Source: Candidatus Coatesbacteria bacterium (GTDB taxonomy: Bacteria > RBG-13-66-14). From it: a stretch of DNA of 36,517 nucleotides. Both the position numbers and the translations under genes were made by a program. This document shows positions 1,440 through 36,335 of this stretch, one piece after another. The notes beneath the pieces were generated by a model, which saw nothing but the letters and a program-made list of their open reading frames with translations, made no database searches and was not told where the DNA came from. The DNA lies in assembly GCA_014728225.1 (NCBI GenBank), contig WJLX01000141.1, positions 1 through 36,517 of the forward strand, written 5' to 3'. Every line of letters starts with the position of its first letter. Within the stretch, counting starts at the first letter, position 1.

Positions 1440-1628
1440 CCGGCTCGGCAAAACAGCCCGGTGAAACGTAACTTGTCGCAGTTACAGCGGGCGGAGTTGG
1501 CACGGTTTTTGCGATAACCGTGCCTTGCCGCCGCCCCCGGGTACGCTGCGATTTGCAAAAACCGTGCCAACTCCGCCCGCCCAAGGTTTGGCGAGGGTCA
1601 TTGCGCCGGGGCTGTTTTGCCGAGCCGG
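1440..1628. repeat. Nested inverted-repeat element, copy 1
   Basis: The outer arms 1440-1459 and 1609-1628 are perfectly complementary over 20 nt (CCGGCTCGGCAAAACAGCCC and its reverse complement). The inner arms 1487-1512 and 1555-1580 are perfectly complementary over 26 nt and end in GGCACGGTTTTTGC-type sequence, around a 42-nt loop. It begins 12 nt after the rnhB stop and fills most of the rnhB/2TM-gene gap. The loop does not resemble that of copies 3-5. No coding sequence and no flanking direct duplication is visible. Confidence 0.9.
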
Positions 1629-1639
1629 CGGCGGCCGCT

Positions 1640-2248
1640 TCAACCGAAGAGCGCGGTCTGTTGGACGGCGCGCCAGCTCCAGCGGTGGGCCGGGCAGGGG
1701 CCCAGGCGGCGCAGGGCTTCGAGGGCCTGGGTGCCGTAGCCCTTGTTGGCGGCGAAGCCGTAGCCGGGGTACAGCTCATCCAGGCGGACCATCAGCCGGT
1801 CGCGGTAGACCTTGGCCAGGATGCCGGCGGCGGCGATGCTGGCGATGCGGCCGTCGCCGCCGACGATGAAGCGGGCGGGTACGTTGAGGCTGTGTTGATG
1901 CAGGTGTTGGGGCGGACCGTCGACCAACAACAGGCGGGGCCGGGTGGCCAGTTCCGCAACGGCCCGACCCATGGCGGCGAAGGAGGCGCCGATGACGTTG
2001 AGGCGGGCGATCTGGCCGGGGCAGGCGTGGGCGACGGCCCAGGCGGCGGCGTGGTTTTCGATCTCGGCGGCCAGGCACGCGCGCCGCTTAGGGCTCAGGC
2101 GTTTGGAATCGTCCAGCCCGGCGGGCACGTCGGCCGGATCGAGGATCACGGCGGCGGCGGTCACCGGACCGGCCAGGGGACCGCGGCCGGCCTCGTCGAG
2201 ACCGGCCACGGGGCCTTGCAGACTGTTTTCATAGGTGTAGTCCAGCAT
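1640..2248 (-). CDS. rnhB: Ribonuclease HII
   Basis: RNase HII cleaves the RNA strand of RNA-DNA hybrids and incises at ribonucleotides misincorporated in DNA. At 202 residues it has the usual length. The family motifs are intact: LDEAGRGPLAGPV with the catalytic Asp18-Glu19, LDDSKRLS, LLLVDG with Asp110, and GGDGRIASIAAAGILAKVYRD with Asp132 and the conserved AKVxRD helix. The ATG overlaps the TGA of the upstream lipoprotein gene by one base (TGATG), which implies translational coupling. A nested inverted repeat follows 12 nt after the stop. Assignment is firm. Confidence 0.96.
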   Translation of the reverse strand: MLDYTYENSLQGPVAGLDEAGRGPLAGPVTAAAVILDPADVPAGLDDSKRLSPKRRACLAAEIENHAAAWAVAHACPGQIARLNVIGASFAAMGRAVAELATRPRLLLVDGPPQHLHQHSLNVPARFIVGGDGRIASIAAAGILAKVYRDRLMVRLDELYPGYGFAANKGYGTQALEALRRLGPCPAHRWSWRAVQQTALFG

Positions 2249-2919
2249 CAGCTCGCGGCCAGGGCGGCGATGAGTTCGAGGGCCAGCCGGCCGCCCTGGG
2301 GCCAGAAGGTCGCCGTACCGACACCCTGATCGAGGACGACGTCGTCCTCTTCGACGATGACGGCGCCGGAGTCCTCGCAGAGTTGGCGCTTGGCCCCGTA
2401 GGGGGCCGTCCGAATCCCGTCGAGGACGCCGGCCCGGGCCAGGGCTTCGACGGCGATCCCCGAGGCGGCCACCAGGGCGCCGGACTCCCGGGTCCGGCGC
2501 ACGAGCCGGTGGACGCTTTCCAGCTTGGTCAGGCGTTCCATCCCCCGGGACTGCATTAGATACAGGGCGTCGTATTCAGCGGTTTCGTCGAGCTCTTCGA
2601 GCTGGAGATCGACGAGGATCTCGCTGCTGCCCAGACCGAAGAGCCGTCCTCCCGTGGAGGCCACCAGCAAGCGGGCGCCGGAGGCCAGCAACAGCCGGCG
2701 GACGTCGTAGAACTCGGGATCATAGAAGTGGCTGCCGACGCAGACGACGATGGTGCGGCCCGCGAGGGCGCCGTCGAGTTCGGCGGGCAGCTCGAGCCGT
2801 TCATCTTCGACTTCGGACTCGGCGGGCGCCGCCGCGGCGGCATCCTCCTCGGCGGGCGGGTCCTCGCCGCAGGCCAGACAAAGCGACAGGGCGATCGGGA
2901 TGACAAGCAGATAACGCAT
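2248..2919 (-). CDS. Lipoprotein with DJ-1/PfpI-like domain, nucleophile cysteine apparently missing
   Basis: The 223-residue protein starts with a lipoprotein signal ending in LSLCLAC (lipidated Cys17), followed by an acidic, Ala-rich linker. Residues from about 50 on form a DJ-1/PfpI-like Rossmann domain: strand TIVVCVGSHFYDPEFYDVRRLL, then GGRLFGLGSSEILVDLQLEEL, then YDALYLMQS. In active family members the nucleophile elbow reads like AAICHG; here the equivalent segment is VAASGIAVEALARAGVLDG, so Ser seems to replace Cys and the following His is absent. It may therefore be a non-catalytic binding protein. It lies 14 nt after apgM and overlaps rnhB by one base. Domain assignment is moderately sure; function is unknown. 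Confidence 0.75.
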   Translation of the reverse strand: MRYLLVIPIALSLCLACGEDPPAEEDAAAAAPAESEVEDERLELPAELDGALAGRTIVVCVGSHFYDPEFYDVRRLLLASGARLLVASTGGRLFGLGSSEILVDLQLEELDETAEYDALYLMQSRGMERLTKLESVHRLVRRTRESGALVAASGIAVEALARAGVLDGIRTAPYGAKRQLCEDSGAVIVEEDDVVLDQGVGTATFWPQGGRLALELIAALAAS

Positions 2920-2933
2920 GGTTTCACCTCGGC

Positions 2934-4202
2934 TCAGGCGCCGAATTTGGAATAACGGTTGGCCAGGTTGAGCAGGACGGGCAGCAGGTCGTCGCCGCGC
3001 AAGCGACCCAGGGAACCGGCGGGGCAGGTGAATTCGTCGAAGGTCTCGCCGCAGTCCGGGCGTACCGCGGGACCGTGGACCAGCAGGGGCACGGGATCAC
3101 CGGCATGGTCCATGCACTCGCAAGGAGTGGAGTGGTCGGCGGTCACGGCGAGGATCGTCTCGCCCTGCCACAGCTCGCGCAGCAGGCCGAGGAGGCGGTC
3201 GACCATCTCGCAGGCCCGGATCTTCTCCCGGGGGTTGTCGTCGTGGCCGGCCAGGTCCGGGGCCTTGACGTTGCAGAAGATGAAGTCGTAATCGTCCCAG
3301 GCGGCGTTGATCGTCGAAGCCATGGCCTCGATGTCGGTGTCGAGCCCGCCGGTGGCGCCGGGGCATTCCAGCAGGTCCAGTCCCAGGTAACGGCCCAGCA
3401 GGCCGGTCAACAGGCCGACCTCGACCAGAGCGGCGGCGCGGACGCCCCGCAGCTCCGGGAAGGCGGGAATGTGGGGCACCAGTCCCCCGCCCCGGGGCAG
3501 GATGCAGTTGGCCGGGGGTTGACCGGCCCCTCGGCGCTCCTCGTTGAGTTCGTGCTCCTCGAGGACCCGATGGCTGAGGGCGACGAACTCGTTGACGGCC
3601 TCGGCGGTGCGCCGGGCGGCGGCGTACTCGGGATGTTCCTTGCCGACGCTGGGTTTGCAGTGATGGAGCAGCTCGTCCTCGACGTGGGGATCGACGTCGA
3701 TCACCCGGCCGGAGAGCCCGTCGCCGCGTAGCACCAGGGCGGCGCGGTGGGCGATGGATTCACGGAACAGGGCCGTCACCCGGCCGTCGACGAGCTTGAC
3801 GCCGTCGAGGGCCCGGGCCAGTTCCCGGGTGCCCTCCTTGATCCGTCCGGCGCGGCGGTCGCGGACGATCAATTCGCCGGAGCGCTCCTCGACGGTGGAG
3901 AAGTTGCAGCGGAAAGCCACGTCACCCTCGTGCAGGCGCAGCCCGACGCCGGCGGCCTCCAGGGGTCCACGGCCGGTGTAGTACTCGTAGGGGTCGTAGC
4001 CTAGCAGGGCCAGATGGGCGGTGTCGCTGCCGGCGCAGATACCGGGGGCGATGGGGTCCATCAGTCCCACGGTCCCGGCGGCGGCCAGCTCGTCGAGCAC
4101 CGGCGTCTGCGCCGCGGCCAGGGGGGTGCGGCCGTCGAGTTCGGCGATGGGGCGGTCGCCCATCCCGTCGCCGACGATCAACAGGATCTTCCTTTGCTGC
4201 AT
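2934..4202 (-). CDS. apgM: 2,3-bisphosphoglycerate-independent phosphoglycerate mutase, archaeal type
   Basis: This 422-residue enzyme belongs to the alkaline phosphatase superfamily and interconverts 3- and 2-phosphoglycerate in glycolysis. The N-terminal metal site IVGDGMGDRP (Asp12), the phosphoserine motif CAGSDTAH (Ser59), a metal-site segment NVKAPDLAGHDDNP and the C-terminal TADHSTPCE are all present. Its length and motifs match the shorter ApgM group, not the roughly 510-residue GpmI group. The ATG at 4200-4202 was chosen: it sits 2 nt after the mreD stop with AAGGGCAGG about 7 nt upstream. A TTG at 4206-4208 in the same frame would add two residues and overlap mreD. The gene is co-transcribed with mreBCD, an unusual neighbour for a glycolytic enzyme. 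Confidence 0.93.
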   Translation of the reverse strand: MQQRKILLIVGDGMGDRPIAELDGRTPLAAAQTPVLDELAAAGTVGLMDPIAPGICAGSDTAHLALLGYDPYEYYTGRGPLEAAGVGLRLHEGDVAFRCNFSTVEERSGELIVRDRRAGRIKEGTRELARALDGVKLVDGRVTALFRESIAHRAALVLRGDGLSGRVIDVDPHVEDELLHHCKPSVGKEHPEYAAARRTAEAVNEFVALSHRVLEEHELNEERRGAGQPPANCILPRGGGLVPHIPAFPELRGVRAAALVEVGLLTGLLGRYLGLDLLECPGATGGLDTDIEAMASTINAAWDDYDFIFCNVKAPDLAGHDDNPREKIRACEMVDRLLGLLRELWQGETILAVTADHSTPCECMDHAGDPVPLLVHGPAVRPDCGETFDEFTCPAGSLGRLRGDDLLPVLLNLANRYSKFGA

Positions 4203-4204
4203 GG

Positions 4205-4684
4205 TCAAACCTGCCCTTCATAGCTGGTGTTCATCAGGCGATCGAAGAGTTCGTATAGCGGCGGCGCGGCCAGGGCCGTGGCGCCGATGCGGCTGAGCAT
4301 CGTCCAGCCGCCCGGGGGCGCCTGGGCACCGGTCAAACTGGCCAAGGCCCAGAGGATCAGCCAGGCGTAGAACCCGGCGGCGGCGACGGTGACGAAGCGC
4401 ACCAGGGGGCTCTTGGGGTAGAGGCTTTCGCGCAACAGGGCGACGATGAGGGCCGTCGAGCCCAGGCAGAACAGCCAGGCCCCCAGGGGACCCCAGCCGC
4501 TGAAATCGAGCAGCAGACCGGCGGCCGCGGCGGTAAGCACGGCGGCGGCGGGTTTTTCGGTCAGCCCCAGGTAGCAGACGGCCAGCAGGACGAGCAGGGG
4601 CTTGAACAGCTCCCAGCCGCCCCAGAGGGCGAACAGGCCGCGCTCGAGGATTAGGGCCGCCAGTAGGGGAAGATAGCGCTTCAC
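4205..4684 (-). CDS. mreD: Rod shape-determining protein MreD
   Basis: The 159-residue protein is almost entirely hydrophobic with about five predicted membrane helices (for example FKPLLVLLAVCYLGLTE, AAAVLTAAAAGLLLDFSGWGPLGAWLFCLGS, FYAWLILWALASL). The small intramembrane LLLDFS..GPLGA segment resembles the conserved MreD pattern. MreD is the membrane component of the elongasome, linking MreB and MreC to peptidoglycan synthesis. Sequence conservation is weak in this family, so the call rests mainly on topology, length and position directly behind mreC, whose stop it overlaps by 4 nt (ATGA). No pbp2 or rodA follows; apgM does. Confidence 0.85.
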   Translation of the reverse strand: MKRYLPLLAALILERGLFALWGGWELFKPLLVLLAVCYLGLTEKPAAAVLTAAAAGLLLDFSGWGPLGAWLFCLGSTALIVALLRESLYPKSPLVRFVTVAAAGFYAWLILWALASLTGAQAPPGGWTMLSRIGATALAAPPLYELFDRLMNTSYEGQV

Positions 4685-5433
4685 GGGGTCACCGAGAGTA
4701 CCAGTTGACCGAACTCGGCGCCGGCGGGATCGGCGGGTCGACCGAGGCTGCAGGCGGCGTCCAGGGCGCCCGGTTCCCAGTCCACCCGGGTTACCCGCCC
4801 CAGGGGGATGCCCGCCGGCAGGCGGCCCAGCCCGCTGGTGACGGCCAATTCCCCCTGCCGTGGCAGAGTCTGACTGCCCAGGTGCCTGACCAACAACTCA
4901 CCCTCGATGTATTCGGCCACGCCGTCGGCCCGGCAGGAGACCAGGCGCGCCCCGCAGGCCCCGGCCCGCGCGAGGGGGACGATTTCAGCGTAATCGTAAG
5001 CCAAGCCGCCGACGACGCCGGCCAGACGGCCGTCGATGATCAGGGCTTCGCCGCCTCGCAGTCCGTCGCTCGCGCCCGCGTCGATGGTCGGCGGCCGGTT
5101 CGCCGTCAACTCCACGGTCAGCAGGCGCCAGGGACTGCGCAGGCGCAGACCCAACTGCTCGCGCAGCGCCTGGTTCTCGGCGGCCAGCACCTCGGCCCGG
5201 GCCAGCTCCTGTTCGACGGCGGCTGTCCGGGCGATAACGGCCAGCTCGTCGTCCTCGTCGGCCAGGAAAGCGTCCCAGCGCTCTCCCAGGGTGGCCAAGG
5301 CGCTGGGCAGGGCGGCCAGCCCGGCACGCAGTTTCTCCAGCGGCGCGAGATCGACGGCGTCGGCCCAAACCAGCAGGGACGACAGCACCAGCAGTCCGAC
5401 GACCAGGGGCGCCAGGCTGCGGACGTCGCTCAT
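4681..5433 (-). CDS. mreC: Rod shape-determining protein MreC
   Basis: MreC is a bitopic membrane protein of the elongasome whose periplasmic beta domains contact class B penicillin-binding proteins. The 250-residue product has an N-terminal membrane anchor (about residues 8-25), a helical, Ala/Glu-rich coiled coil (about 55-100, ending AAENQALREQLGL) and a beta-rich C-terminal part with the family pattern TANRPPTIDAGASDGLRGGEALI..GRLAGVV and TSGLGRLPAGIPLGRV. The gene begins 1 nt after the mreB stop (TGAGATG) and overlaps mreD by 4 nt. It is near the short end of the family's length range but appears complete. Confidence 0.92.
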   Translation of the reverse strand: MSDVRSLAPLVVGLLVLSSLLVWADAVDLAPLEKLRAGLAALPSALATLGERWDAFLADEDDELAVIARTAAVEQELARAEVLAAENQALREQLGLRLRSPWRLLTVELTANRPPTIDAGASDGLRGGEALIIDGRLAGVVGGLAYDYAEIVPLARAGACGARLVSCRADGVAEYIEGELLVRHLGSQTLPRQGELAVTSGLGRLPAGIPLGRVTRVDWEPGALDAACSLGRPADPAGAEFGQLVLSVTP

Positions 5434-5434
5434 C

Positions 5435-6475
5435 TCAGGCCTCCTCGCCGCGCAGGACGACCTTGGCGAAGCGCTCGCCGTCGTCGATGATCTTGCCGGC
5501 TCCGGCGACGACGGTTGTCAGCGGGTTGTCGACCCGGGTGATGGTCAGCTTGGTCTCACTGGAGATCAGACGGTCCAGGTCGCGCAGCAGGGAGCCGCCG
5601 CCGGCCATGAACACTCCGCGATCGACGATGTCGGCGGACAGCTCGGGCGGGGTCTTCTCCAGGGTCTGGCGAACGGCGAGGAGGATGTTACCCACGGGTT
5701 CCGCAATGGCCTCGCGCACCTCGGCCGAGGTTATCTCCAGGGTCCGTGGCACGCCCTCGACGACGTCGCGGCCGCGGATCAGCATCGTTTCCTCCTCGTC
5801 CTGGGGAAAGGCGGTGCCGATCTTGAGCTTGATCGATTCGGCCGTCTGTTCACCGACGAGGAGGTTGTAGGTCTTGCGCAGGTACTTGTCGATGGCGGCG
5901 TCCATCTCGTCGCCGCCGATGCGGATGCTAGTGTTGGTGACGATGCCGGAGAGAGAGATCACGGCGACCTCGGTGGTTCCGCCGCCGATGTCGACGATCA
6001 CGTTGCCCACCGGCTCGTGGACGGGCAGGTCGGCGCCGATGGCGGCGGCCATCGGTTCGTAGACCATCAACACCTCGCGGGCGCCGGCGTGGAGGGCGGA
6101 GTCGCGCACGGCGCGCTTCTCGACCTCGGTGATCCCCGAGGGGACGCAGATCAGCGTCCGCGGTCGGATCAGCCGCCGCCGACCGTGGCTTTTCGAGATG
6201 AAGTACTTGAGCATCCGCTCGGTGACTTCATAGTTGGCGATCACACCGTCCTTCATCGGCCGCAGGGCGCTGATCGTCCCCGGGGTGCGCCCGAGCATCG
6301 TCTTGGCCTCCAGGCCGACGGCGATCACCTGCTGGGTGTCGCGCTTGAGGGCGACCACGGAGGGCTCGTCGATGACCACGCCCTCGCCGCGGACGTAGAC
6401 CAGCGTGTTGGCCGTGCCCAGATCGATGGCGATGTCGTGGGAGAACAGACCGAAGATGGCGCCGAGTAGGCCCAC
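5435..6475 (-). CDS. mreB: Rod shape-determining protein MreB (bacterial actin)
   Basis: MreB polymerises under the inner membrane and positions the cell-wall elongation machinery. The 346-residue product carries the actin-fold phosphate loops IAIDLGTANTLVYV and VIVDIGGGTTEVAVISL, the adenosine motif GVFMAGGGSLLRDLD, and the conserved segments IGGDEMDAAI and GEQTAESIKLKIG. The hydrophobic N-terminal residues GLLGAIFGLF probably serve as the membrane-binding helix. The GTG at 6473-6475 is chosen because GGGGG lies just upstream and the start falls 8 nt after the upstream stop; a start at 6544 would overlap the preceding gene by about 60 nt and add residues without MreB similarity. First gene of the mreBCD set. 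Confidence 0.95.
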   Translation of the reverse strand: MGLLGAIFGLFSHDIAIDLGTANTLVYVRGEGVVIDEPSVVALKRDTQQVIAVGLEAKTMLGRTPGTISALRPMKDGVIANYEVTERMLKYFISKSHGRRRLIRPRTLICVPSGITEVEKRAVRDSALHAGAREVLMVYEPMAAAIGADLPVHEPVGNVIVDIGGGTTEVAVISLSGIVTNTSIRIGGDEMDAAIDKYLRKTYNLLVGEQTAESIKLKIGTAFPQDEEETMLIRGRDVVEGVPRTLEITSAEVREAIAEPVGNILLAVRQTLEKTPPELSADIVDRGVFMAGGGSLLRDLDRLISSETKLTITRVDNPLTTVVAGAGKIIDDGERFAKVVLRGEEA

Positions 6476-6483
6476 GTTGCCCC

Positions 6484-8061: not shown

Positions 8062-8166
8062 TGTTGAGGACCTCGGAAGATTGCTCGAAAAACCCGATCA
8101 TCGAAGCGCCGCACACCAGCGGAAGGCCGGCCGTCAGTGCGCTCCGCTATAATGGTGACACGGACA

Positions 8167-8195
8167 AATATAGCAGAAAGCACCGATTAGTGTAA
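8167..8195 (-). promoter_or_regulatory. Sigma70-like promoter for the GT-C/mreBCD operon
   Basis: On the minus strand TTACAC (8190-8195) and TATATT (8167-8172) are separated by exactly 17 bp. Transcription would begin near 8160, giving a leader of about 100 nt before the GTG at 8061. No other good hexamer pair was seen between the tRNA terminator and the gene. Confidence 0.65.
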
Positions 8196-8271
8196 CTCAT
8201 CAGCCCGGCGGATTGGAAATCCATCCCCCAACCGGGCCGTCTCACAGCCTCGGTCGGTGACAAACAAGAAG

Positions 8272-8292
8272 CGGTCCCCCGAAAGGGGACCG
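8272..8292 (-). terminator. Stem-loop terminator after tRNA-Arg
   Basis: CGGTCCCC (8272-8279) pairs perfectly with GGGGACCG (8285-8292) around a 5-nt loop, immediately after the tRNA-Arg 3' end. On the minus strand it is followed by CTTCTTGTTTGT, a loose T-rich tail, so it is a plausible but not textbook intrinsic terminator. Confidence 0.6.
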
Positions 8293-8295
8293 CGG

Positions 8296-8374
<79 letters not shown>

Positions 8375-8412
8375 GATCGACCGCCGAAGCGGTCGTAACA
8401 CTACAGGTACCG

Positions 8413-8506
<94 letters not shown>

Positions 8507-8552
8507 GCGGGGCCACTGGTGAACAGGTACCGCCCGTTTGATGGGCCAGGGG

Positions 8553-8582
8553 ATTATACCGACGCCGCAGGCCGGAGGTAAA
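8553..8582 (-). promoter_or_regulatory. Promoter for the tRNA-Ser(GCT)/tRNA-Arg pair
   Basis: A perfect TATAAT -10 (8553-8558 on the minus strand) is preceded by TTTACC (8577-8582) at 18-bp spacing. It lies directly downstream of a terminator for the preceding transcript, as expected for an independent tRNA unit. Transcription would start about 40 nt before the mature tRNA-Ser. Confidence 0.6.
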
Positions 8583-8584
8583 GG

Positions 8585-8670: not shown

Positions 8671-8858
8671 CCTTTGAAAAACAGCCTCGCCCGGCTTCAA
8701 CCGCGCCCGCCAGCCGCGCGAGCCGGAACTGGCACGGTTTTTGCAGCTCCGGACCCGTCCGGACGTTTAGCGGCACAGGATTGCGCAAAAACCGTGCCAG
8801 TTCCGGCGGCTTGGGCTGTTGTCAGGTGTTATCGAATACGGGGGCTGTTTTTCAAAGG
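8671..8858. repeat. Nested inverted-repeat element, copy 2
   Basis: The outer arms CCTTTGAAAAACAGCC (8671-8686) and GGCTGTTTTTCAAAGG (8843-8858) are perfectly complementary. The inner arms 8722-8744 and 8785-8807 are perfectly complementary over 23 nt (GCCGGAACTGGCACGG... ending TTTTTGC) around a 40-nt loop that itself contains CCGGAC/GTCCGG. It lies between tRNA-Ser(TGA) and the terminator at 8585-8610. Confidence 0.9.
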
Positions 8859-14626: not shown

Positions 14627-14806
14627 CGCCGGAAAAACAGCCTCCGGGGGCGTCGATAAGCGACCGCCACCGCCGGAACCGGCACGGTTTTTGCATCTCG
14701 GCGCCCGTTCGAACGATGATAACGGGTCGCCTCCGCAAGAACCGTGCCGGTTCCGGCGGTGGCGGTTTTTGGCGGTCGGTCGAGGAGGGAGGCTGTTTTT
14801 CCGGCG
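14627..14806. repeat. Nested inverted-repeat element, copy 3 (in the adk leader)
   Basis: The outer arms CGCCGGAAAAACAGCCTCC (14627-14645) and 14788-14806 are perfectly complementary over 19 nt. The inner arms 14664-14694 and 14735-14765 match over 31 nt with one mismatch, around a 40-nt loop (14695-14734) whose GGCG, CCCGTT, AACGGG and CGCC blocks can form an inner hairpin. The loop closely resembles copies 4 and 5. The element ends 36 nt upstream of the adk start. Confidence 0.9.
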
Positions 14807-21434: not shown

Positions 21435-21436
21435 CG

Positions 21437-26619: not shown

Positions 26620-27822
<1,203 letters not shown>

Positions 27823-28059: not shown

Positions 28060-28133
28060 GGATCCTTCTGCGCGGATCCTCCTGCGGGTCCTCCTGCGGG
28101 TCCTCCTGCGGGTCCTTCTGCGGGTCCTTCTGC
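28060..28133. repeat. 12-bp tandem repeat in the fusA-tuf spacer (SD-like on the transcribed strand)
   Basis: Six units related to GGGTCCTCCTGC: 28060-28071, 28074-28085, 28086-28097, 28098-28109, 28110-28121 and 28122-28133, with a decayed seventh after that. On the minus strand each unit reads GCAGGAGGACCC or GCAGAAGGACCC, so every unit presents an AGGAGGA- or AGAAGGA-like Shine-Dalgarno sequence, without a suitably placed start codon, about 240-310 nt upstream of tuf. Confidence 0.85.
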
Positions 28134-28233
28134 GGGTGCTTCGGTCGGCTACTTATGGAGCGTACTCCCGAGAAGTCCGGTCCTCACGGTCTCGACCGCA
28201 CGCGGTCCCGCTCGTGAGGTGCAAAGGGCCGAC

Positions 28234-28308: not shown

Positions 28309-30399
28309 TTATTTGTCCCACCAGCGCCCCGGGGCGTCCTCGGGAACGGGATCATAACGCTCGAACTGCATGTGATAGGCGGCGCGGCCCTGGGTCAGCG
28401 AGCGCACGGCGGTGGCGTAGCCGAACATCGCCGACAGCGGCACCAGGGCGTCGATGATCTGGGCGCCGCCGCGAACCTGGGTCTCCAGGATCTGACCCCG
28501 GCGGGCGACCAGGTCCTTGAGCACATTGCCGACGAAGTCCTCGGGACAGGTGATCTCCAGGGCCATGGTCGGTTCGAGGACCACGGCGGCGGCCTGTTCG
28601 CAGGCCTGATGGAAGGCCCGGAAGGCGGCGGCCTGGAAGACCTCGGGCGTCGAGGCCTCGTCGTCGTGGCGCGCCCCGACGAGGCGGGCCTTGACGTCGA
28701 CCATCGGATAGCCGGCGACGGGGCCGGAGAAGGTGCCCTGACGGCAGCCCTCGGCGATCGCCGCGTGGAAATCCCGGGGCAGTTCATCGATATCGCCGGT
28801 GAAGGCGAAGCCGGCGCCGGATGCGTTGGGTTCAACGGCCACAGCGACCTCGGCGAACTGCCGCCTGCCGCCCAGCAAGCGATCGAGGGTGAAACGGGCC
28901 TTGCCGGCGGCGGTGACGGATTCCTTGTAGGCGATCTGGGGCTCGCCGACGCGACAGCCGACGTTGAACTCGCGCCGCAGGCGGTCGACGATCACCTCGA
29001 GGTGCAGCTCGCCCATGCCGGAGATGATCCGTTGGCCGGTCTCGGCGTCTTCGTGAACGGTGAAGGTCGGATCGTCGGCGGCCAGCTCGTCCAGGGACGC
29101 CTCGAGCTTCTTCTCGTCCTCCGTCGAGCGGGGCTCGATGGCCACGCGGACGACGGGCTCCGGGAATTCGATCTCGCCGAGGACCAGGGGGTACCGGGGA
29201 TCGCAGAGGGTGTCGTTGGTGCGACAGCCTTTGAGGCCGACGGCGGCGCCGATCTCGCCGGGACCCAGGGTCTTGACGTCGTGCTTTTTATTGGCGTGCA
29301 TCTCCAGCAGGCGGTTGATGCGCACCTTGCGGCCGGTGTGGCTGTTGAGCAGGACGTCCTTGACGCTCAGGGTGCCCGAGTAGGTGCGGAAGAAGGTCAG
29401 GTTGCCGACGAAGGGGTCGGTGGCCGTCTTGAAGACGTAGGCCGTGGACGGTTCGCCGGCGTCGGGCCGGCGCGTCTCCCGTTCACCGTTTTCCGGGTTG
29501 AGCCCGCCGACGGCGCCGCGGTCCAGCGGACTGGGCAGCAGATCGATGACGGCGTCGATGACCGGCTGGACGCCCTTGTTGCGCAGGGCGCTGGCGGCGA
29601 AGACCGGGTGCAGCTCGCTGGCCAGGGTGCCGGCGCGCAGGGCGGCCAGCAAGAGCCCGGGGTCCAGCTCCTCACCGTGAAGGTAGGCCTCGAGCAGCCC
29701 ATCGTCGTAGTCGCAGGCGGCCTCGACGAGACGCTCCCGGTAGGGCGCGGCGTAGTCGCGCTCCCCGTCGGTCAGGGTACGGCGCTCGACGGACAGGCCC
29801 AGATCATCGCCGAAGGTGACCAGCTCCTCGCGGACCAGGTCGATGACGCCGCGGAACTCGTCCTCCAGCCCCAGGGGGATGGTGACGGGGACGGGGGAGG
29901 CTTCGAGTTTGTCGACGAGGTCGGCGACGGCGCGGTCGTAATCGGCGCCGATGCGGTCGAGCTTGTTGATGACGGCGATGCGCGGTACGCCGTAACGGGC
30001 GGCCTGGCGCCAGACGGTCTCGGACTGCGGCTGAACTCCCGCCACGCCGCAGAAGACGCCCACGGCGCCGTCCAGAACTCTCAAAGAACGCTCCACCTCG
30101 ACGGTGAAGTCGACGTGGCCCGGGGTGTCGATGATGTTGATCCGGTGCTCGCGCCAGAAGCAGGTGGTGGCGGCGGAGGTGATGGTGATGCCGCGCTCCT
30201 TCTCCTGCTCCATCCAGTCCATCTCGGCGGCCCCGTCGTGGACCTCGCCGATCTTGTGAGTCTTGCCCGTATAGTAAAGGATCCGCTCGGTCAGGGTGGT
30301 CTTGCCGGCGTCGATATGGGCGGTGATCCCGACGTTGCGCACCCGGGCGATCTCGGCGTCGGTTTTCGCGCTGGCGTTTGTGTGGCTCGCTTTACTCAC
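28309..30399 (-). CDS. fusA: Elongation factor G
   Basis: EF-G (696 residues) drives translocation and ribosome recycling. The G domain shows [79 protein letters not shown] and [11 protein letters not shown]. Domains II-V follow, with [20 protein letters not shown], the domain IV segment [15 protein letters not shown] and [30 protein letters not shown]. The GTG at 30397-30399 yields the family's length; upstream codons have no similarity. Separated from rpsG by an atypically long 626-nt spacer. Confidence 0.97.
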
Positions 30400-31025
30400 G
30401 GGTGATCCTGACGGCCGGGACGGCGTACGGCGGGTAAAGTCCGCCCAGAACCGGCCCGGCGGCGTCCCGGGCCGATGTCGGGTGGATGTCGGGCGTACAT
30501 CCGCCGCACGGACGCCGGTGAGACCGCTGTCGTCTCGGCGGTTCCGTGCGCGATGGTTTAAGCTGTAGTTGCAGTCGCCCCATGGGCGGGTGCGAGGTCG
30601 GGCGCGGCCCGACACTGACCGGTCGCCGGCGAACCGTCTGCCGCCCGCTGATCGTCGCCCGCTGCCCGATGATATGCGTCGACGGGGTACGGCTGAGATC
30701 TCGGGGACGGCTGGGGTATGGCGCGGGGCCTATCTCAGCCCCTCCGGTCTTTCCGGGGGCCCTTGTCGGTCGGCGCTCCGACGGGAGACGTGCGGCGCGG
30801 CGGCCTTAGCGGGCGCTGATTATGGCTGGACGAGGTGCTTCGGCGGTCTCATTCGGGGTGCCTTGTCGATAAGGTCCCTGTCGAATGCCGACCGTCCTGG
30901 GATAGCGACCGTGCCGATTGCCCGGTCCCCAGTCCAGCCCACCCGGCTCGGTGGGGGGTTGACGAGTTTCCCGCCGCGCAGGCGGGACGGCGTCAAGACC
31001 CCGGGGAAGGGTGTTGCTGCTGCGC
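30400..31025. other. Gene-free spacer between rpsG and fusA
   Basis: This is the longest gap inside the supercluster (626 nt). Reading frames on the plus strand here are overlapping, Arg- or Pro-rich and without recognisable family, ribosome-binding site or membrane segment, so none is called. An AGTCCAGCCC unit at 30931-30940 resembles the motif repeated in the secY, tuf and tRNA spacers. Confidence 0.55.
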
Positions 31026-31496
31026 TTAGACGCGGAAGTGGGCGAAGGCCTTGTTGGCCTCGGCCATGCGGTGCGTGTCCTCGCGCTTCTTGACGGAGGC
31101 GCCGACGCCGTTATGGGCGTCGATCAGCTCCATGGCTAGCTTATTGGTCATGCCGTGCTCGTGACGCTTGCGGGCGAAAGAGATCATCCAGCGGATGGCC
31201 AGGGTGACCTTGCGCTCCGGCGAAACCTCGAGGGGCACCTGGTAGGTGGCGCCGCCGATGCGGCGGCTCTTGACCTCGAGGGTCGGCTTGACGTTCTTGA
31301 GGGCGTCCTGGAAGACCTGGAAGCCTTCCTTGCCCGTTTTCTTTTCGACGAGCTCGAGGGCGTCGTAGAAGATGTGCTCGGCGGTGGACTTCTTGCCGTC
31401 GTACATCAGATTGTTGATGAAGCGCGTCACCAACGGTGAACCGTGAAGTGGATCCGGGGTCAGCTTGCGCCGGGAGACCTTCTGTCTGCGGGACAT
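31026..31496 (-). CDS. rpsG: 30S ribosomal protein S7
   Basis: S7 (156 residues) organises the 30S head and the mRNA exit. [69 protein letters not shown] and [39 protein letters not shown] are family-typical. It starts 3 nt after rpsL. Confidence 0.98.
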
Positions 31497-31499
31497 GGG

Positions 31500-31871
31500 C
31501 TAACCCTCCTTCCGGGTGCCGTACTTGGAACGCTGCTGCTTGCGACCGCTGACGCCGATAGCGTCCAGGGTGCCGCGGACGATGTGGTAGCGCACGCCGG
31601 GAAGATCCTTGACACGGCCGCCGCGGACCAGCACGATGCTGTGCTCCTGCAGGTTGTGGCCCTCGCCGGGGATGTAGCTGGTTACCTCAATCCCGTTGGT
31701 CAGACGCACACGGGCGACCTTGCGCAGGGCCGAGTTCGGCTTCTTGGGCGTCACGGTCCAGACGCGGGTGCAGACGCCCTTGCGCTGCGGACAGGACTGC
31801 AGGGCCGGCGACTTGGTCTTTTTCCGGTGGACCTTGCGACCCTTGCGGACGAGCTGGTTGACGGTCGGCAT
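31500..31871 (-). CDS. rpsL: 30S ribosomal protein S12
   Basis: S12 (123 residues) lies at the decoding centre. [60 protein letters not shown] and [29 protein letters not shown] are diagnostic. The Lys residues of TPKKPNS and GRVKDLPG, sites of known streptomycin-resistance changes, are wild type. First gene of the str operon, behind the promoter at 32015-32043. Confidence 0.98.
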
Positions 31872-32014
31872 CGGTGTTTCTACCTCGGATGCGTTGTAAG
31901 GGCGCTTAGCGGGAAAGAGTCCGGCGAGCGGTTCGTTACATCCACCCGTTAGCCCTTGGTAAATCGTAACTTACTCAGCAATAGCCTCAAAGCAGTGCGC
32001 TCGAAGGGCGATGA

Positions 32015-32043
32015 GAATAAGATAGCCTCCCGGAGTCTGTCAA
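32015..32043 (-). promoter_or_regulatory. Sigma70 promoter of the str operon
   Basis: A consensus TTGACA (32038-32043, minus strand) is followed at 17 bp by TTATTC (32015-32020). Transcription from near 32008 would give a leader of about 135 nt before rpsL. It is the strongest promoter seen upstream of the ribosomal genes and may drive much of the supercluster. The inverted-repeat copy 4 starts 58 bp upstream of the -35. Confidence 0.7.
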
Positions 32044-32100
32044 GGTTTTTCGTCGGACAAAAGCGCGCCGACACACCGCCGACACAACTACCGGGGCGAC

Positions 32101-32295
32101 CGCCCCCGCGAAAAATAGCATCCCTTGACCAAACGGTTCACCAGCGCCCGTACCGCCGGAACCGGCACGGTTTTTGCGGAGGCGGACCGTTAGCTTCCGT
32201 CGCAACGATCGCCGAGATGCAAAAACCGTGCCGGTTCCGGCGGCGGACGCTTCCAGCGGGGTGCGTAACGGGCGGGGCTGTTTTTCGCGGGGGCG
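32101..32295. repeat. Nested inverted-repeat element, copy 4 (between divergent str operon and GT-C/TPR gene)
   Basis: The outer arms CGCCCCCGCGAAAAA (32101-32115) and TTTTTCGCGGGGGCG (32281-32295) are perfect; they continue as TAGC against GCTG, where the single mismatch becomes a U-G wobble in RNA. The inner arms 32153-32177 and 32219-32243 are perfect over 25 nt around a 41-nt loop. The loop is the reverse complement of the copy 3/5 type, so this copy is inverted relative to them. Confidence 0.9.
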
Positions 32296-32373
32296 TCTTG
32301 TTTCCCTGCGGCCCAGGCGTTAAACTGGTCGTTGTTTCATCGAGCAAGCATCCCGTTCTCCGATGAGGAGCTC

Positions 32374-34461
32374 ATGAGTATTGAAACCGCAACGGCTGTG
32401 GTTGGGGGCGACGAGGGCCTCTGGGCTTGGATCCGGCGCCGCCGCTGGCCGCTCGTCATCTTTACCGTGGCGTTGGCCCTGCGGCTGGGTGCGGTGTTCA
32501 CCCTGGCCGATGAGCCCCTGGGCATGGTCAACGTCGCCGACGCCTACAAGTACGAGGAGCTGGCCGACGAGATCCTGTCCGGGGACCTGCTGGCCGGTGA
32601 CGAGGCCTTTTTTCATTCGTCGACGGGTTACCCCTACCTGCTGGCCCTGGTCTGGTCGATCTTCGGCAAGTCGCTGACCTTGGTGCGGGTGTTGCAGGCC
32701 CTGGCGGGGGCGCTGACGGCGGTGGTGCTGTTCGCGATCGCCCGGCGGTTGTTCGGCGGCGAAGCGGACACCGAACGGCGGCGCGGCGAGATCGTCGGCC
32801 GAATCACGGGTTTGGCGACGGCGTTCTACGGCTATCTGGCCTTCCTGGAATGGGACACCTTGATGACGGCCTGGGAGCTGCTGTTTCTGGCCTTGGCGCT
32901 ATGGTTTCTGCTGCGCTTTTTGGACGAGCGCGGCTGGGGGCGACTCGTTGGCGCCGGAGTTTTCTGCGGCCTGGCGGCGCTGGGGCGGCCGAACACCTGG
33001 CTGGTGGCGCTGGTGTTGGCGGTGTTCCTCATCGTGTATCTACGGCGCAGCGCGGGCTGGCGCTGGCTCAAGGCCCTCGGCGCGGGCGCGCTGATCGTCG
33101 GGCTGTGTTTCGTCTTCATCCTCCCGGTGACCCTGCGCAACGCTGCGGTGGATGAGGAGGGCGTCCTGCTGTCCTGCAACGGCGGGGTCGTTTTCTGGAT
33201 CGGCAACCATCGCGGCGCCGACGGGACCTTCAACGTACCCGATGAATTCAAGGACGAGCTCTACGCCGCGACGAAGCAACGGGCCGAGGCGATCCGCGGC
33301 CGTAGTTTGAGCGCGGCGGAGTACGACGCCTTCTGGTTCGACGAAGCGTTGGAGGAGATCTTCGCCGATCTGCCGGCGGCGATCGGCTTGATCGGCCGCA
33401 AGGCGCTGCTGTTGGTCAACGATTACGAGATGCCCAACCATCTCGACTTCTACTTCGTCCGCCGTCACGGCGGTTGGTGGTTCTGGCTGCTGCCGGTGGG
33501 CTTCTGGCTGTTGTTGCCCCTGGCTGTGGTCGGATTGGCCCGCTGGCGGCCCTGGCGGACGCGGCACTGGCTAGTCGGCGTCTACTTGTTGCTGTACGCC
33601 GTCATGGTGGTCGGGATGTTCGTCACCGGCCGTTACCGCATGCCGCTGACGCTGCTGTTGATTCCCTTCGCTGCTTACGGTGTTTATCATCTGATCGATG
33701 TTCTACGCAACCGTCGTTGGCGGGAGCTGCGTTGGACGGTGCTGTGGCTGGCGCCGGCGGCGCTGCTGGTCAACGGTCCCTGGCCGGCGGACTACCGGGT
33801 CGAGGAGGCCTACAACTGGGGGCGGCTGGCCGAGGCCCACCGACGGCTCGATGATCCGGCGGGAGCCGTGGCGGCCTATCAGGCGGCCATCGAGGAAGAA
33901 CCGGACAACCCCTTCTTCTACAACAACCTGGGCCTCTACGCCCTGGAGCGTGGCGAGCTCGAGGAGGCCGAAGGACTGCTGCGACGGGCTTACGACCTCT
34001 CGGGCGGACAGCCGGACAACGCCGCCAACCTGGCCATCGCCCTGGCCCGCAGGGGGAAAACGGTCGAGGTCGTCGGTTTGCTCGAACGGGCCCTGGAGCG
34101 CCAACCCAACCATCTCGGCTGCCTGACCAATCTGGCGGCCAGCTACCTCAATCTGGGTCGTCCTGACCTGGCGCTGGAGTACAGCGCTCGGGCCCTCGAG
34201 CTGGGCGAGGCCGCGCCCCAGCTCTACAACGTCCGGGTCTACGCCCTGCTGGGCGTTGGACGGGCCGGTGAAGCGCTCGGCCTGCTGGAGCGGGCCCTGG
34301 CCGAACTGCCCGACGAGCGCTCCCTTTGGACCACGCGCAGCTACGTCCTGTTGCAGACGGGGGACGCCGCCGGGGCCCGCTCGGCCCTGCGGCGGGCCCT
34401 GGAGCTCGAGGGGTTGCCGGATCCGCGCCTTGACACTCTGCGCGCCCAACTGGGACTGTGA
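32374..34461 (+). CDS. GT-C glycosyltransferase-like membrane protein fused to C-terminal TPR repeats
   Basis: The 695-residue protein has about ten membrane helices (residues about 27-480) followed by a soluble TPR region (about 485-690, five to six repeats such as NPFFYNNLGLYALERGELEEAEGLLRRAYDL). The first loop holds Asp56 (NVADAYKYEELADEIL) and HSSTGYPYLLALVWSIFG, the layout of PMT/ArnT-type GT-C enzymes that use lipid-linked sugars. The TPR domain probably binds a protein partner or substrate. The ATG at 32374-32376 has GATGAGGAG upstream; an earlier in-frame TTG (32332) lacks such a site. Its stop overlaps the next gene (TGATG). Sugar and acceptor are unknown. Confidence 0.85.
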   Translation: MSIETATAVVGGDEGLWAWIRRRRWPLVIFTVALALRLGAVFTLADEPLGMVNVADAYKYEELADEILSGDLLAGDEAFFHSSTGYPYLLALVWSIFGKSLTLVRVLQALAGALTAVVLFAIARRLFGGEADTERRRGEIVGRITGLATAFYGYLAFLEWDTLMTAWELLFLALALWFLLRFLDERGWGRLVGAGVFCGLAALGRPNTWLVALVLAVFLIVYLRRSAGWRWLKALGAGALIVGLCFVFILPVTLRNAAVDEEGVLLSCNGGVVFWIGNHRGADGTFNVPDEFKDELYAATKQRAEAIRGRSLSAAEYDAFWFDEALEEIFADLPAAIGLIGRKALLLVNDYEMPNHLDFYFVRRHGGWWFWLLPVGFWLLLPLAVVGLARWRPWRTRHWLVGVYLLLYAVMVVGMFVTGRYRMPLTLLLIPFAAYGVYHLIDVLRNRRWRELRWTVLWLAPAALLVNGPWPADYRVEEAYNWGRLAEAHRRLDDPAGAVAAYQAAIEEEPDNPFFYNNLGLYALERGELEEAEGLLRRAYDLSGGQPDNAANLAIALARRGKTVEVVGLLERALERQPNHLGCLTNLAASYLNLGRPDLALEYSARALELGEAAPQLYNVRVYALLGVGRAGEALGLLERALAELPDERSLWTTRSYVLLQTGDAAGARSALRRALELEGLPDPRLDTLRAQLGL

Positions 34462-35114
34462 TGCCGGCCTGGACGCCCCCCGAGCGGCCACCCCGGTCAG
34501 GCGACTACGCCCCCTTCTGGCGTTTGGCGGCCGCCCTGACCGAGGTCCGCGTCTTTCGCCTGCGGATCATGGGCCGGTCCGGCTGGATAAAACTGCTGGA
34601 TACGCTGGGAAAACCGTTGGGCGTAGAGCTCTCCGGCTTCGACGCTTTCACCTGGAACGGAACCGTCCATCTGGCCGAGCGGCTGTTCGGCACCCGGGCG
34701 GGCTACCTGGTGCTGCGCCACGAGGCCGTCCACCTACTGGATCAGCAACGCCTGGGACCGCTGCCCTTCATCATCGCCTACCTGCTGTTGCCTCTGCCCG
34801 CGGTGATCACTCTGCGGGCGCTGTTCGAATGGCGGGGCTACCGCGAGACCCTGCGGGCCTACCGAGAACGCAGCCCCAAGCTGGCCCGGCGCCGGGCGGA
34901 GAAGCTCGTCCGCCAGTTCGCCTCGGGGCGCTACCTCTTCATGTGGCCCTTTCGCCGCGCGGTCGAGGGCTGGATCGAGCGGGAACTGGCGCGGCTCGAG
35001 TCCAGCGGCGGCCGGGCGCCCCGGGGGCTGGAAGAGCTGGAGCGCCTCACCGCCGCCGCTCCCCAGGGCGAAGGCGGCGACAGCCTTCCCGGCCCGCCCT
35101 CGATCATCGATTGA
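34461..35114 (+). CDS. HExxH putative membrane-associated zinc metalloprotease-like protein
   Basis: The 217-residue protein contains the zincin motif in YLVLRHEAVHLLDQQRLG (His87-Glu88, His91), followed by a hydrophobic stretch FIIAYLLLPLPAVITLRALF that may be a membrane segment, then EWRGYRETLRAYRE, where Glu123 or Glu129 could supply the third zinc ligand. The C-terminal half is helical and basic. The arrangement recalls uncharacterised gluzincin-like families with HExxH...Q and a downstream E..AY motif, but I cannot name the family. The start ATG overlaps the TGA of the GT-C/TPR gene by one base, so the two are translationally coupled and likely act together in the envelope. Confidence 0.75.
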   Translation: MPAWTPPERPPRSGDYAPFWRLAAALTEVRVFRLRIMGRSGWIKLLDTLGKPLGVELSGFDAFTWNGTVHLAERLFGTRAGYLVLRHEAVHLLDQQRLGPLPFIIAYLLLPLPAVITLRALFEWRGYRETLRAYRERSPKLARRRAEKLVRQFASGRYLFMWPFRRAVEGWIERELARLESSGGRAPRGLEELERLTAAAPQGEGGDSLPGPPSIID

Positions 35115-35138
35115 ACCGGGTAGATTGAACCGGGTAAT
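35111..35138. repeat. Direct repeat of TTGAACCGGGTA at the promoter of the secreted-protein gene
   Basis: TTGAACCGGGTAGA (35111-35124) is followed directly by TTGAACCGGGTAAT (35125-35138), a 14-bp period. The first unit covers the end of the preceding gene and the second abuts the -35 element, a placement suited to a regulator site but also compatible with simple slippage. Confidence 0.75.
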
Positions 35139-35166
35139 TGACCCCGCCCGCCGACGGTTGTATCCT
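35138..35166 (+). promoter_or_regulatory. Sigma70-like promoter for the secreted-protein gene
   Basis: TTGACC (35138-35143) and TATCCT (35161-35166) are separated by 17 bp. A transcript starting near 35173 would have a short leader before the ATG at 35199, which has GGAGG at good spacing. Confidence 0.6.
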
Positions 35167-35198
35167 TATTAATGTAACCTACCCAGCCGGAGGCAGCC

Positions 35199-35816
35199 AT
35201 GAAACGGACAACCCTCGTTCTGCTCGGCCTGCTGTGCGCCGCCGGCGCCTTCGAAGTCGTCGTCGGCCAGGCCGAGACGCCCACCAACATCCCCTTCTGC
35301 GGCCACTGAGTGAACTCCTACCGAGTCCAGGATCTGGTACTCGCCCAGGAGATCTGCACTTCCGGCACGCTGACCGAGATCACCTTCCAAGCCGCCTCCG
35401 CCGCAACCAGGGCCGAGTTCAACGGTTGGGAGATGCGCCTCTGCCACACCTCCCTCGACGAGCTGACCGACAACTTCGCCGACAACTACGACGGCAACAC
35501 CCCCCAGCTCGTCCACGCCGCCGACCCCCTCATCCTCTCCTGCGCCGTCGACGACTGGTTGACCCTCGAAGGTTTCATCACCTTCGAATACAACGGCGTC
35601 GACAATCTCCTCGTCGAGTACCAGTGGTCCGGCGACAACTCGACAGACATCGACACCTGGATGTGGACGGCGGATGGCGACCGCCTGCTGTACCACAAGT
35701 ACCTGGACAGCCCGACGGGTTACCTGTCCACCAAGCTGCACCGCTTCCGCCTGAGCTTCGCGGACGCCGCCGTCGAACCCGCCAGTTGGGGTGAGATCAA
35801 AGCCGCAGGACTATAG
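35199..35816 (+). pseudogene. Secreted protein gene interrupted by a single in-frame TGA
   Basis: From the ATG at 35199 (GGAGG upstream) the frame encodes a signal peptide MKRTTLVLLGLLCAAGAFEVVVG and the mature start TPTNIPFCGH, then meets TGA at 35307-35309. The same frame continues without interruption for 168 more codons, from VNSYRVQDLVLAQEIC to EIKAAGL, ending in TAG at 35814-35816. Promoter, ribosome-binding site and signal peptide belong to the first part and the folded domain to the second, so this is one gene with a nonsense codon; a TGG (Trp) to TGA change is the simplest origin. Alternatives are recoding, reinitiation at the GTG directly after the stop (35310), or a sequencing error. 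The mature domain looks like a beta-rich extracellular module; function unknown. Confidence 0.75.
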
Positions 35817-36106
35817 AAGGTCAAAGATACCGCGGCAAACCGCCGTTGCGGACCGGCTCATTCTAATGGCGGTCGCCCCGTCCAAGGGCGACAACGCTGA
35901 AGCTCCAGTCATCCATCTTCCGCCGGCCGGACAGCCTTAGCCCGCCGGAAAACGGTCGGGCCGGACTCCGGCTGACGCCTACTCATCAATGACGACAGCT
36001 CGTGCTGTTTCCTGATCTTCCTTTTCGGCCCCCGCCTGTGCTCCAGCCTGTTCTCGCCCAAGGCCTAGGCCTCGGCCTCGGCCACACCTTCTAGGTGGTG
36101 GCAGCC
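35817..36106. other. Gene-free region downstream of the secreted-protein gene
   Basis: No credible gene is seen. GTCGCCC (35872-35878) can pair with GGGCGAC (35886-35892) but no T tract follows, so it is only a weak terminator candidate. A short GGCCTAGGCCTCGGCCTCGG run lies near 36062-36081. Confidence 0.5.
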
Positions 36107-36335
36107 GCGGACCTTTGACAAACAGCCTGTTTACTTATATGGGCTGGGGCCTTGAATCGGAGTTTCGACACTAGTCGAAACGCCGTCGCTACGAAGCAGC
36201 GCAGGCACAGGTTTTTGCATCTCGGCGACCGTTCAAGCTAATGATAACGGTCCGCCTCCGCAAAAACCCTGCCGGTTCCGGCGCCGCGGACTCGGGCGAC
36301 GTCGCCGGTCGTTTGGACGCTTTTTCAAAGATCCG
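36107..36335. repeat. Nested inverted-repeat element, copy 5 (degenerate)
   Basis: The left outer arm CGGACCTTTGACAAACAGCC (ending 36126) pairs imperfectly with the right arm around 36315-36335 (CTTTTTCAAAGATCCG). The inner arm is reduced to GGTTTTTGC/GCAAAAACC plus an imperfect GGCA/TGCC extension. The loop (about 36218-36259) is well preserved and matches copy 3: ATCTCGGCG, ACCGTT, AATGATAACGGT and CGCCTCC. The left inter-arm segment is about 40 nt longer than in other copies. Confidence 0.8.

What the first reader, a model, noticed from the sequence alone, without database searches (positions are those of the whole stretch)
1440..36335. Five-copy family of nested inverted-repeat elements whose outer arms co-vary
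Seen directly: elements at 1440-1628, 8671-8858, 14627-14806, 32101-32295 and 36107-36335 share one plan: outer arm with A(A/C)AAACAGCC, inner arm ending GGCACGGTTTTTGC, loop of 40-42 nt. The outermost 6-10 nt are different in each copy (CCGGCTCGGC, CCTTTGA, CGCCGG, CGCCCCCGCG, CGGACCTTTGA), yet within copies 1-4 the two ends are exactly complementary. Simple transposon terminal repeats would be the same in every copy and need not track each other. Copy-specific complementarity suggests either selection for a long paired structure (structured RNA or DNA cruciform) or a copying mechanism that regenerates the arm. No target duplications and no encoded protein are visible.
Basis: partly seen in the sequence, partly recalled or inferred. 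Interest (0 to 1): 0.88.

Follow-up and report, generated by a model that had tools for sequence, protein, structure and literature searches.

The report
Hundreds of nested face-to-face promoter palindromes
A little-known bacterium carries about 300 scattered copies of a 190-base nested DNA palindrome whose inner arms look like two sigma-54 promoters facing each other and whose outer arms differ from copy to copy yet always match each other, most likely because copying errors during DNA replication keep rewriting one arm from the other.

Summary
The window's five elements belong to a family of about 300 copies in this genome, which is in the same family as the Coatesbacteria MAG Bin_537. Bin_537 holds at least 147 copies. 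Of 386 genomes searched, only four had a strict match to the core, all from this taxonomic family. The plan is: copy-specific outer arm, unpaired variable spacer, conserved inner arm, 40-43 nt loop, then mirror image. Outer arms pair 98% against 71% when arms are dealt between copies. Departures from consensus in the inner arm are almost always the same in both arms (86 against 13; 105 against 8). G-T pairs are not favoured over other mismatches, which argues against RNA. The loop has been inverted in one recent duplicate pair and one orthologous pair. Twenty-one of 24 syntenic sites are empty in the other genus.

The genome has rpoN, and eight of eight informative single copies of the motif point at gene starts. 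Best reading: a dispersed MITE/ERIC-like palindromic element with two convergent sigma-54 promoters, its arms kept matched by replication template switching. No mobilising enzyme was found.

The parts
1440..1628 (.). element copy 1, complete (outer arms 1440-1459 and 1609-1628, CCGGCTCGGCAAAACAGCCC)
1499..1512 (+). copy 1 inner arm, sigma-54-type promoter core reading into the loop
   Evidence: consensus comparison
1555..1568 (-). copy 1 inner arm, opposite promoter core
8671..8858 (.). element copy 2, complete (outer arms 8671-8686 and 8843-8858, CCTTTGAAAAACAGCC)
8731..8744 (+). copy 2 inner arm, sigma-54-type promoter core (TGGCACGGTTTTTGC)
8785..8798 (-). copy 2 inner arm, opposite promoter core
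14627..14806 (.). element copy 3, complete (outer arms about 14627-14645 and 14788-14806)
14681..14694 (+). copy 3 inner arm, sigma-54-type promoter core
14735..14748 (-). copy 3 inner arm, opposite core with one one-sided change (GCAAGAACCGTGCC)
32101..32295 (.). element copy 4, complete (outer arms 32101-32119 and 32277-32295, one mismatch)
32164..32177 (+). copy 4 inner arm, sigma-54-type promoter core
32219..32232 (-). copy 4 inner arm, opposite promoter core
36107..36335 (.). element copy 5, decayed: outer arms CGGACCTTTGACAAA / CGGATCTTTGAAAAA no longer match fully, inner arms changed
36204..36218 (+). copy 5 inner arm GGCACAGGTTTTTGC (GG-N11-GC, promoter spacing broken)
36260..36273 (-). 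copy 5 opposite inner arm GCAAAAACCCTGCC

Best explanation
The elements are copies of a dispersed, non-coding, intergenic DNA element of about 190 bp that is confined to one family of Coatesbacteria. It is a nested inverted repeat: copy-specific outer arm (P1, about 15-20 bp), unpaired spacer, conserved inner arm (P2, about 20-28 bp), a 40-43 bp loop with a weaker inner hairpin, then the mirror image. Shown: copy number, anatomy, intergenic placement about 20-30 nt after stop codons, dispersal with empty sites, one recent duplication bounded by the outer arms, two-sided changes in the arms, loop inversion. Shown by sequence only: the inner arm is the sigma-54 promoter consensus with exact GG-N10-GC spacing, so each element carries two convergent sigma-54-type promoters. 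Inferred: RpoN binds them. Inferred, most likely: the arms stay matched because a replicating strand that has folded or switched template at the palindrome copies one arm from the other (template switching, also called quasipalindrome correction). That process rewrites single changes into both arms without a G-U stage and, as a by-product, inverts the loop. Long tracts that would also copy the spacers are probably lost because long perfect palindromes are unstable. How the element moves is not known.
For: Copy number and control: 299+302 against 1+0; a strict core pattern gives 109 copies in the own genome, 147 in Bin_537, 2 and 1 in two others of the family and 0 elsewhere among 386 genomes. 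Outer arms: own 19.7 against other-copy 9.0; the same in Bin_537, 17.0 against 9.1; column pairing 98.3% against at most 77.2% re-dealt, with up to 28 of 48 copies changed on both sides at one position. Inner arms and the 6 nt outside them: the same departure in both arms 86 times, differing arms 13 times (own); 105 against 8 (Bin_537). Base -26 is C/C in 64 and T/T in 48 copies with no mixed pair. No wobble preference or strand bias. Loop inversion: orientation random against the intrinsic side asymmetry of Bin_537, 28 against 36; inverted between the ~90% identical duplicates L225:521 and L228:5563, whose similarity runs from outer arm to outer arm; inverted between the orthologous copies in L085 and L259. 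Dispersal: 24 syntenic sites, 3 shared. Sigma-54: rpoN present; eight activator-type matches with E below 1e-60 in the own genome; in the own sample all 13 single motif hits are intergenic, and all 8 that are not contig-end halves or paired sites point at a gene start 29-214 nt away, among them a sigma-70 factor, a small heat-shock protein and NtrC-like regulators as read from sequence; no N9 or N11 spacing variants against 215 and 203 N10 sites. Literature: template switching homogenises inverted-repeat arms and inverts spacers (PMC8604942) and can maintain hairpin stems without a G-U intermediate (PMC8794818).
Against: Two-sided changes are also what selection for pairing would leave. The spacers between P1 and P2 are never homogenised, which template switching needs an extra assumption to explain. 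In the orthologous pair L085/L259 both P1 and P2 are unchanged while spacers are unalignable, which points to purifying selection at that locus. The 14-mer is almost frozen at all positions, including those sigma-54 does not need. The few decayed copies have mismatched outer arms too, as selection would predict. In the duplicate pair no target duplication is visible; 42-nt and 13-nt flanking direct repeats occur in only two other copies. No mobilising enzyme was identified.
Confidence: 0.55

Rival explanations
1. A host-serving sigma-54 module kept by selection: two sigma-54 RNA polymerases bind the convergent promoters, and the paired outer arms (cruciform, or the same upstream activator site placed in front of each promoter) are selected in each copy.
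For: Native sigma-54 promoters in this genome have the same motif. Loop length is held at 40-42 (own) and mostly 43 (Bin_537) although its middle varies. In Bin_537 the outer arm sits about 35 nt from the core on one side and about 46 on the other, one helical turn apart, with the long gap on the GAGGC side. P1 and P2 are unchanged in the orthologous pair L085/L259. Copies sit mainly just after stop codons and few lie between divergent genes (8 of 107 in the own genome).
Against: Only 3 of 24 syntenic sites are shared, about what the density of copies would give by chance. Copy number in genus g4 is 0, 1, 2 and 40 for one core type. The better promoter (TTGCA) points with the genes no more often than against them, 32:32 and 28:26. 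Some copies have both arms changed at conserved sigma-54 positions, such as GGTACGG and GGCATGC. A shared activator site would not need identity at every position.
Confidence: 0.24
2. An ordinary MITE moved by an IS transposase through its terminal inverted repeats.
For: Size, intergenic location, copy number, palindromic form, and a recent duplicate bounded by the outer arms. In G006 a subset of copies lies inside a unit of about 430 bp with terminal repeats GGGAT.. resembling those of the decayed IS1595-like family.
Against: The outer ends differ between copies, no general target duplication is seen, and the IS1595-like relics have other ends (GGGAT..). No DDE_Tnp_1, Y1 or reverse transcriptase domain was found in the own genome or Bin_537; other transposase families were not searched.
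Confidence: 0.12
3. A high-copy structured RNA with a conserved fold.
For: Covariation of P1, P2 and partly the inner hairpin; very stable predicted folds.
Against: Wobble pairs are no commoner than other mismatches and show no strand bias; the loop occurs in both orientations; no Rfam match besides tRNAs; promoters inside the element would transcribe only half of the hairpin.
Confidence: 0.05
4. Bidirectional transcription terminators of the neighbouring genes.
For: Placement about 20-30 nt after stop codons; A5/T5 tracts in the outer arm of the own genome.
Against: Several neighbouring genes have their own hairpin-like terminators between stop codon and element (read by eye); the outer arm of Bin_537 mostly lacks the T tract; genes at empty sites lack the element.
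Confidence: 0.04

Closest known systems
ERIC / Correia-type bacterial MITEs
   Same: Non-coding palindromic elements of about 100-200 bp, tens to hundreds of copies, intergenic; Correia repeats carry promoters and can invert (PMC10969869).
   Different: Here the promoters are of sigma-54 type and form the inner arms themselves; outer ends are copy-specific; no general target duplication; the loop, not the whole element, inverts.
REP / BIME repeats with RAYT (Y1) transposase
   Same: High-copy intergenic palindromes located mainly downstream of genes (PMC3733652).
   Different: Much larger, nested, and no Y1 transposase in the own genome or Bin_537; the GTAG or CGTC tag was not examined.
Template-switch (quasipalindrome) mutation of inverted repeats
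   Same: Arm homogenisation and spacer inversion, as described for yeast genes (PMC8604942) and RNA stems (PMC8794818).
   Different: Seen here as a genome-wide pattern in a high-copy bacterial element and in much longer arms and spacers.
Sigma-54 (RpoN) -24/-12 promoters
   Same: TGGCACG-N4-TTGC with exact GG-N10-GC spacing; the same motif as single sites in front of genes of this genome.
   Different: Two promoters placed face to face in a palindrome, about 300 times per genome, with no obvious target gene.

Membership tests
MITE | short, non-coding, multi-copy, intergenic | tested here: met
   about 300 copies, about 190 bp, 0 of 107 classified copies inside predicted genes
MITE | conserved terminal inverted repeats shared by all copies | tested here: not met
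   outer arms are inverted repeats but copy-specific; only a loose GACC..GAAAAAC or GACC..GGC core is shared
MITE | target site duplication | tested here: not met
   direct repeats flanking copies no commoner than with shuffled partners, except two copies
MITE | related autonomous element with transposase | tested here: inconclusive
   no DDE_Tnp_1, Y1 or RVT_1 in G000 and G001; IS1595-like relics have different ends; other transposase families not searched
MITE | insertion polymorphism / dispersal | tested here: met
   21 of 24 syntenic sites lack the element in the own genome; one recent duplicate pair
REP/RAYT | Y1 transposase in the genome | tested here: not met
   no PF01797 match in G000 or G001
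sigma-54 promoter | GG-N10-GC spacing and TGGCAC..TTGC consensus | tested here: met
   215 and 203 N10 sites, no N9 or N11 variant
sigma-54 promoter | RpoN present in the genome | tested here: met
   PF04552, E 1.2e-56 in G000
sigma-54 promoter | binding by RpoN and activator-dependent transcription | not testable with these tools
   needs ChIP or in vitro transcription
structured RNA | wobble pairs tolerated on the transcribed strand | tested here: not met
   P1: 17 against 16 by strand and 64 transversions; core columns 3, 2 and 5
template-switch mutation | arm homogenisation plus spacer inversion | tested here: met
   two-sided changes 86:13 and 105:8; inverted loops

The most novel reading that the evidence does not exclude
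A genome-wide sigma-54 architecture: several hundred face-to-face sigma-54 promoter pairs act as transcriptional roadblocks or bidirectional antisense promoters at gene ends, and the copy-specific outer arms are selected paired sites (cruciform or shared activator site) that give each element its own address.
Probability: 0.15. Interest if true: 0.85.

Novelty: new variant of a known kind. Interest (0 to 1): 0.62.

Why it matters
The family would be a clear natural case of bacterial inverted-repeat arms rewritten from each other and of loops flipped, with hundreds of parallel copies in one genome; this makes the question 'selection or template switching behind compensatory changes' directly countable. 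It also warns that copy-specific covariation, usually taken as proof of a functional RNA, can appear in DNA elements that show no sign of RNA constraint. If RpoN binds the arms, these genomes carry about 600 sigma-54 sites in convergent pairs, which would be an unusual load on, or use of, a sigma factor with only about eight activators.

Tried and rejected
Rfam: nothing but tRNAs. REP/RAYT: no Y1 transposase in the own genome or Bin_537. DDE_Tnp_1 and reverse transcriptase: none. IS1595-like relics as the mother element: ends differ; but in G006 the core rides inside such a unit. Target duplications: no general excess. RNA: wobble test negative. A preferred direction of the better promoter relative to genes: none. 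Other phyla: the Glassbacteria and Clostridia genomes each hold a single pattern match; viral hits L337 and L338 are tandem or irregular motif pairs, not this element. Orthologous maintenance of all copies: only 3 of 24 sites shared. A dedicated RNA/covariance model was considered but not built; column counts with re-dealt arms were used instead. A side-asymmetry recount used too strict a text match to classify many copies; the count is used.
Full report
What was checked. Copies 1-4 have copy-specific, complementary outer ends; copy 5 is decayed. The inner 14-mer GGCACGGTTTTTGC occurs 299 times forward and 302 times reverse in the own genome with at most one mismatch, against 1 and 0 for the same pattern read backwards, so the family has about 300 copies, one per 10 kb. 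A scan of named genomes gave almost only contigs of Candidatus Coatesbacteria bacterium Bin_537; its copies match those of handle G001, which lies in the same family as the window's genome but in another genus. The window therefore comes from a Coatesbacteria-type MAG; its own record is not named.

Anatomy. In 78 complete copies, later 108 of the own genome and 111 of Bin_537, the plan is the same: outer arm P1, unpaired spacer, inner arm P2, loop, and mirror image. The loop is 40-42 nt in the own genome and most often 43 in Bin_537. The loop of the own genome (ATCTCGGCGACCGTTA..TAACGGTC.GCCTCC) forms a third, weaker hairpin and is found in both orientations. In Bin_537 one side has CCGGC next to the core and a gap of about 35 nt to P1, the other GAGGC and about 46 nt; the loop orientation is random against this asymmetry (28 against 36). 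G006, of a third genus, has the same CCGGC/GAGGC asymmetry around the core, but there the loop orientation is fixed in all copies read, one arm has an extra base (GG-N11-GC), and outer arms are mostly missing.

Covariation. P1 arms of one copy align with a median score of 19.7, arms of different copies with 9.0; 17.0 against 9.1 in Bin_537. Column by column, positions with almost no conservation are paired in 98-100% of anchored copies. Re-dealing arms between copies gives at most 77.2% pairing against 98.3% observed. In the inner arm and the 6 nt outside it, the two arms carry the same departure from consensus 86 times and differ 13 times in the own genome, 105 and 8 in Bin_537. Base -26 is C/C or T/T, never mixed, in the own genome. 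These counts rest on arms placed by local alignment, so column values for weakly paired ends are somewhat inflated.

RNA or DNA. If the pairing were kept as RNA, G-U pairs on the transcribed strand should be tolerated. Mismatches in P1 are 17 and 16 of GU type by strand and 64 transversions in the own genome, close to the 1:1:4 of random mismatches; relative to gene direction 7 and 7. In the core columns they are 3, 2 and 5. Bin_537 has relatively more transitions (23 and 31 against 59; 17, 13 and 28 in core columns), again without strand bias, as ordinary mutation would give. The pairing is therefore a DNA-level feature, or is produced by a process that does not pass through G-U.

Dispersal. 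Between Bin_537 and the own genome 268 reciprocal best protein pairs (median identity 68%) gave 24 syntenic intergenic sites with an element in Bin_537; the own genome has an element at only 3, no more than density would give. Several empty sites are only 9-44 bp long. One pair of recent duplicates in Bin_537 (L225:521, L228:5563) is about 90% identical from GCCCCGGCAAAGCCC to GGGCTTTGCCGGGGC and unrelated outside, and its loop is inverted. One site is shared with clear homology: the copies in L085 (own) and L259 (Bin_537) have the same P1 (GACCTCGGCTGAC) and P2 in both arms, diverged spacers and an inverted loop. This is the strongest sign of constraint on a single copy. Flanking direct repeats are not enriched; a 42-nt one flanks L085 and a 13-nt one flanks L050:2066.

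Enzymes. No Y1 transposase in the own genome or Bin_537, no DDE_Tnp_1 and no reverse transcriptase there or in G006. The own genome holds many decayed copies of one transposase gene that I read as IS1595-like from its sequence (no family search was run on it); their ends are GGGATACC.. and GGGATCACACACGATCATGGACC. In G006 part of the core copies lie inside a unit of about 430 bp with similar GGGAT ends, so there the core appears to have been carried along by another element.

Sigma-54. The inner arm reads (C/T)GGCACGGTTTTTGC in the own genome, TTGGCACGTTTCTTGC in Bin_537 and TGGCACAGTTTTTGC in G006. This is the consensus of sigma-54 promoters (TGGCACG-N4-TTGC, GG-N10-GC; from general knowledge). 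The genome has one RpoN and eight activator-type proteins with E below 1e-60. Outside elements, TGGCAC[AG]-N4-TTGC occurs 13 times in 1.22 Mb, always between genes although about 81% of the sequence is coding; the 8 that are not element halves at contig ends or paired sites all point at a gene start 29-214 nt away, among them genes that read as a sigma-70 factor, a small heat-shock protein and two NtrC-like regulators. So the motif is used as a promoter in this genome, and each element holds two of them face to face. One has A and the other G after TTGC; the A promoter points with or against co-directional genes equally (32:32; 28:26). Whether RpoN binds the elements is not shown.

Placement. 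Copies lie between genes, median 21.5 nt (own) and 26 nt (Bin_537) from the upstream stop codon and 83.5 and 94 nt from the next start for co-directional genes; 8 and 11 lie between divergent genes. Gene calls come from a home-made codon-pair score, so distances are approximate.

Mechanism. Template switching between short inverted repeats makes the arms identical and inverts the spacer (PMC8604942), and can keep stems paired without a G-U stage (PMC8794818). Both signs are found here in many copies, which makes this the best single account of the copy-specific outer arms. It does not by itself explain why spacers stay unpaired, why the 14-mer is nearly frozen, or why P1 and P2 are unchanged in the orthologous pair. 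Selection on the sigma-54 cores, and perhaps on hairpin formation, is likely to act as well. I give the combined account 0.55 and a mainly selected sigma-54 module 0.24.

Distribution. Among 386 genomes the strict core pattern is found only in four genomes of this family: 109 in the own genome, 147 in Bin_537, 2 and 1 in others. Viral contigs gave two unrelated motif arrays. I found no paper describing these repeats in Coatesbacteria and none on sigma-54 promoters as arms of repeats; the library is limited to open-licence papers.

Noticed in passing
L038:2196, L042:157 and 12250, L044:5177, L100:1802 and 4279, L116:5441, L117:10774: A second, shorter family: GGCRCGGTTNTTGC - a perfect copy-specific hairpin of about 30 nt - GCAANAACCGTGACG, with copy-specific outer extensions; a likely cousin with a shorter loop.
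   Followed up: partly
L117:18555-19028, L315:1357-1782, L090:7967-8381, L046:7740-8184 and many others: A decayed high-copy element with an IS1595-like transposase gene and ends GGGATACC.. / GGGATCACACACGATCATGGACC; many remnants in 1.22 Mb of the own genome, some also in Bin_537 and G006.
   Followed up: partly
L085:1790-2080: One copy of Bin_537 type (GGCACGTTTCTTGC) in the own genome, orthologous to that in L259, flanked by a 42-nt direct repeat of the end of the neighbouring gene.
   Followed up: partly
L163, L165, L136, L160 (G006): The core palindrome sits inside a unit of about 430 bp with GGGAT-type terminal repeats; one promoter arm has GG-N11-GC in the copies read.
   Followed up: partly
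L337:3662-3735 and L338:8861-8933: IMG/VR contigs with tandem or irregular pairs of sigma-54-like motifs facing each other (TTGGCACGCTTATTGC-TAT-GCAAGAATCGTGCCAA in L337).
   Followed up: no
contig ends of the own genome (e.g. L036 at 18822, L048 at 14514, L084 at 2968): Many contigs break inside an element, so the assembly is fragmented by the palindromes and the copy count is a lower bound.
   Followed up: no
window 28072-28140: A 12-nt tandem repeat (GCGGGTCCTCCT) between the large minus-strand ORFs that end at 28309 and start at 27822.
   Followed up: no
window 937-1060 and 1240-1363: Two 124-nt direct repeats, 75% identical, just before element copy 1.
   Followed up: no
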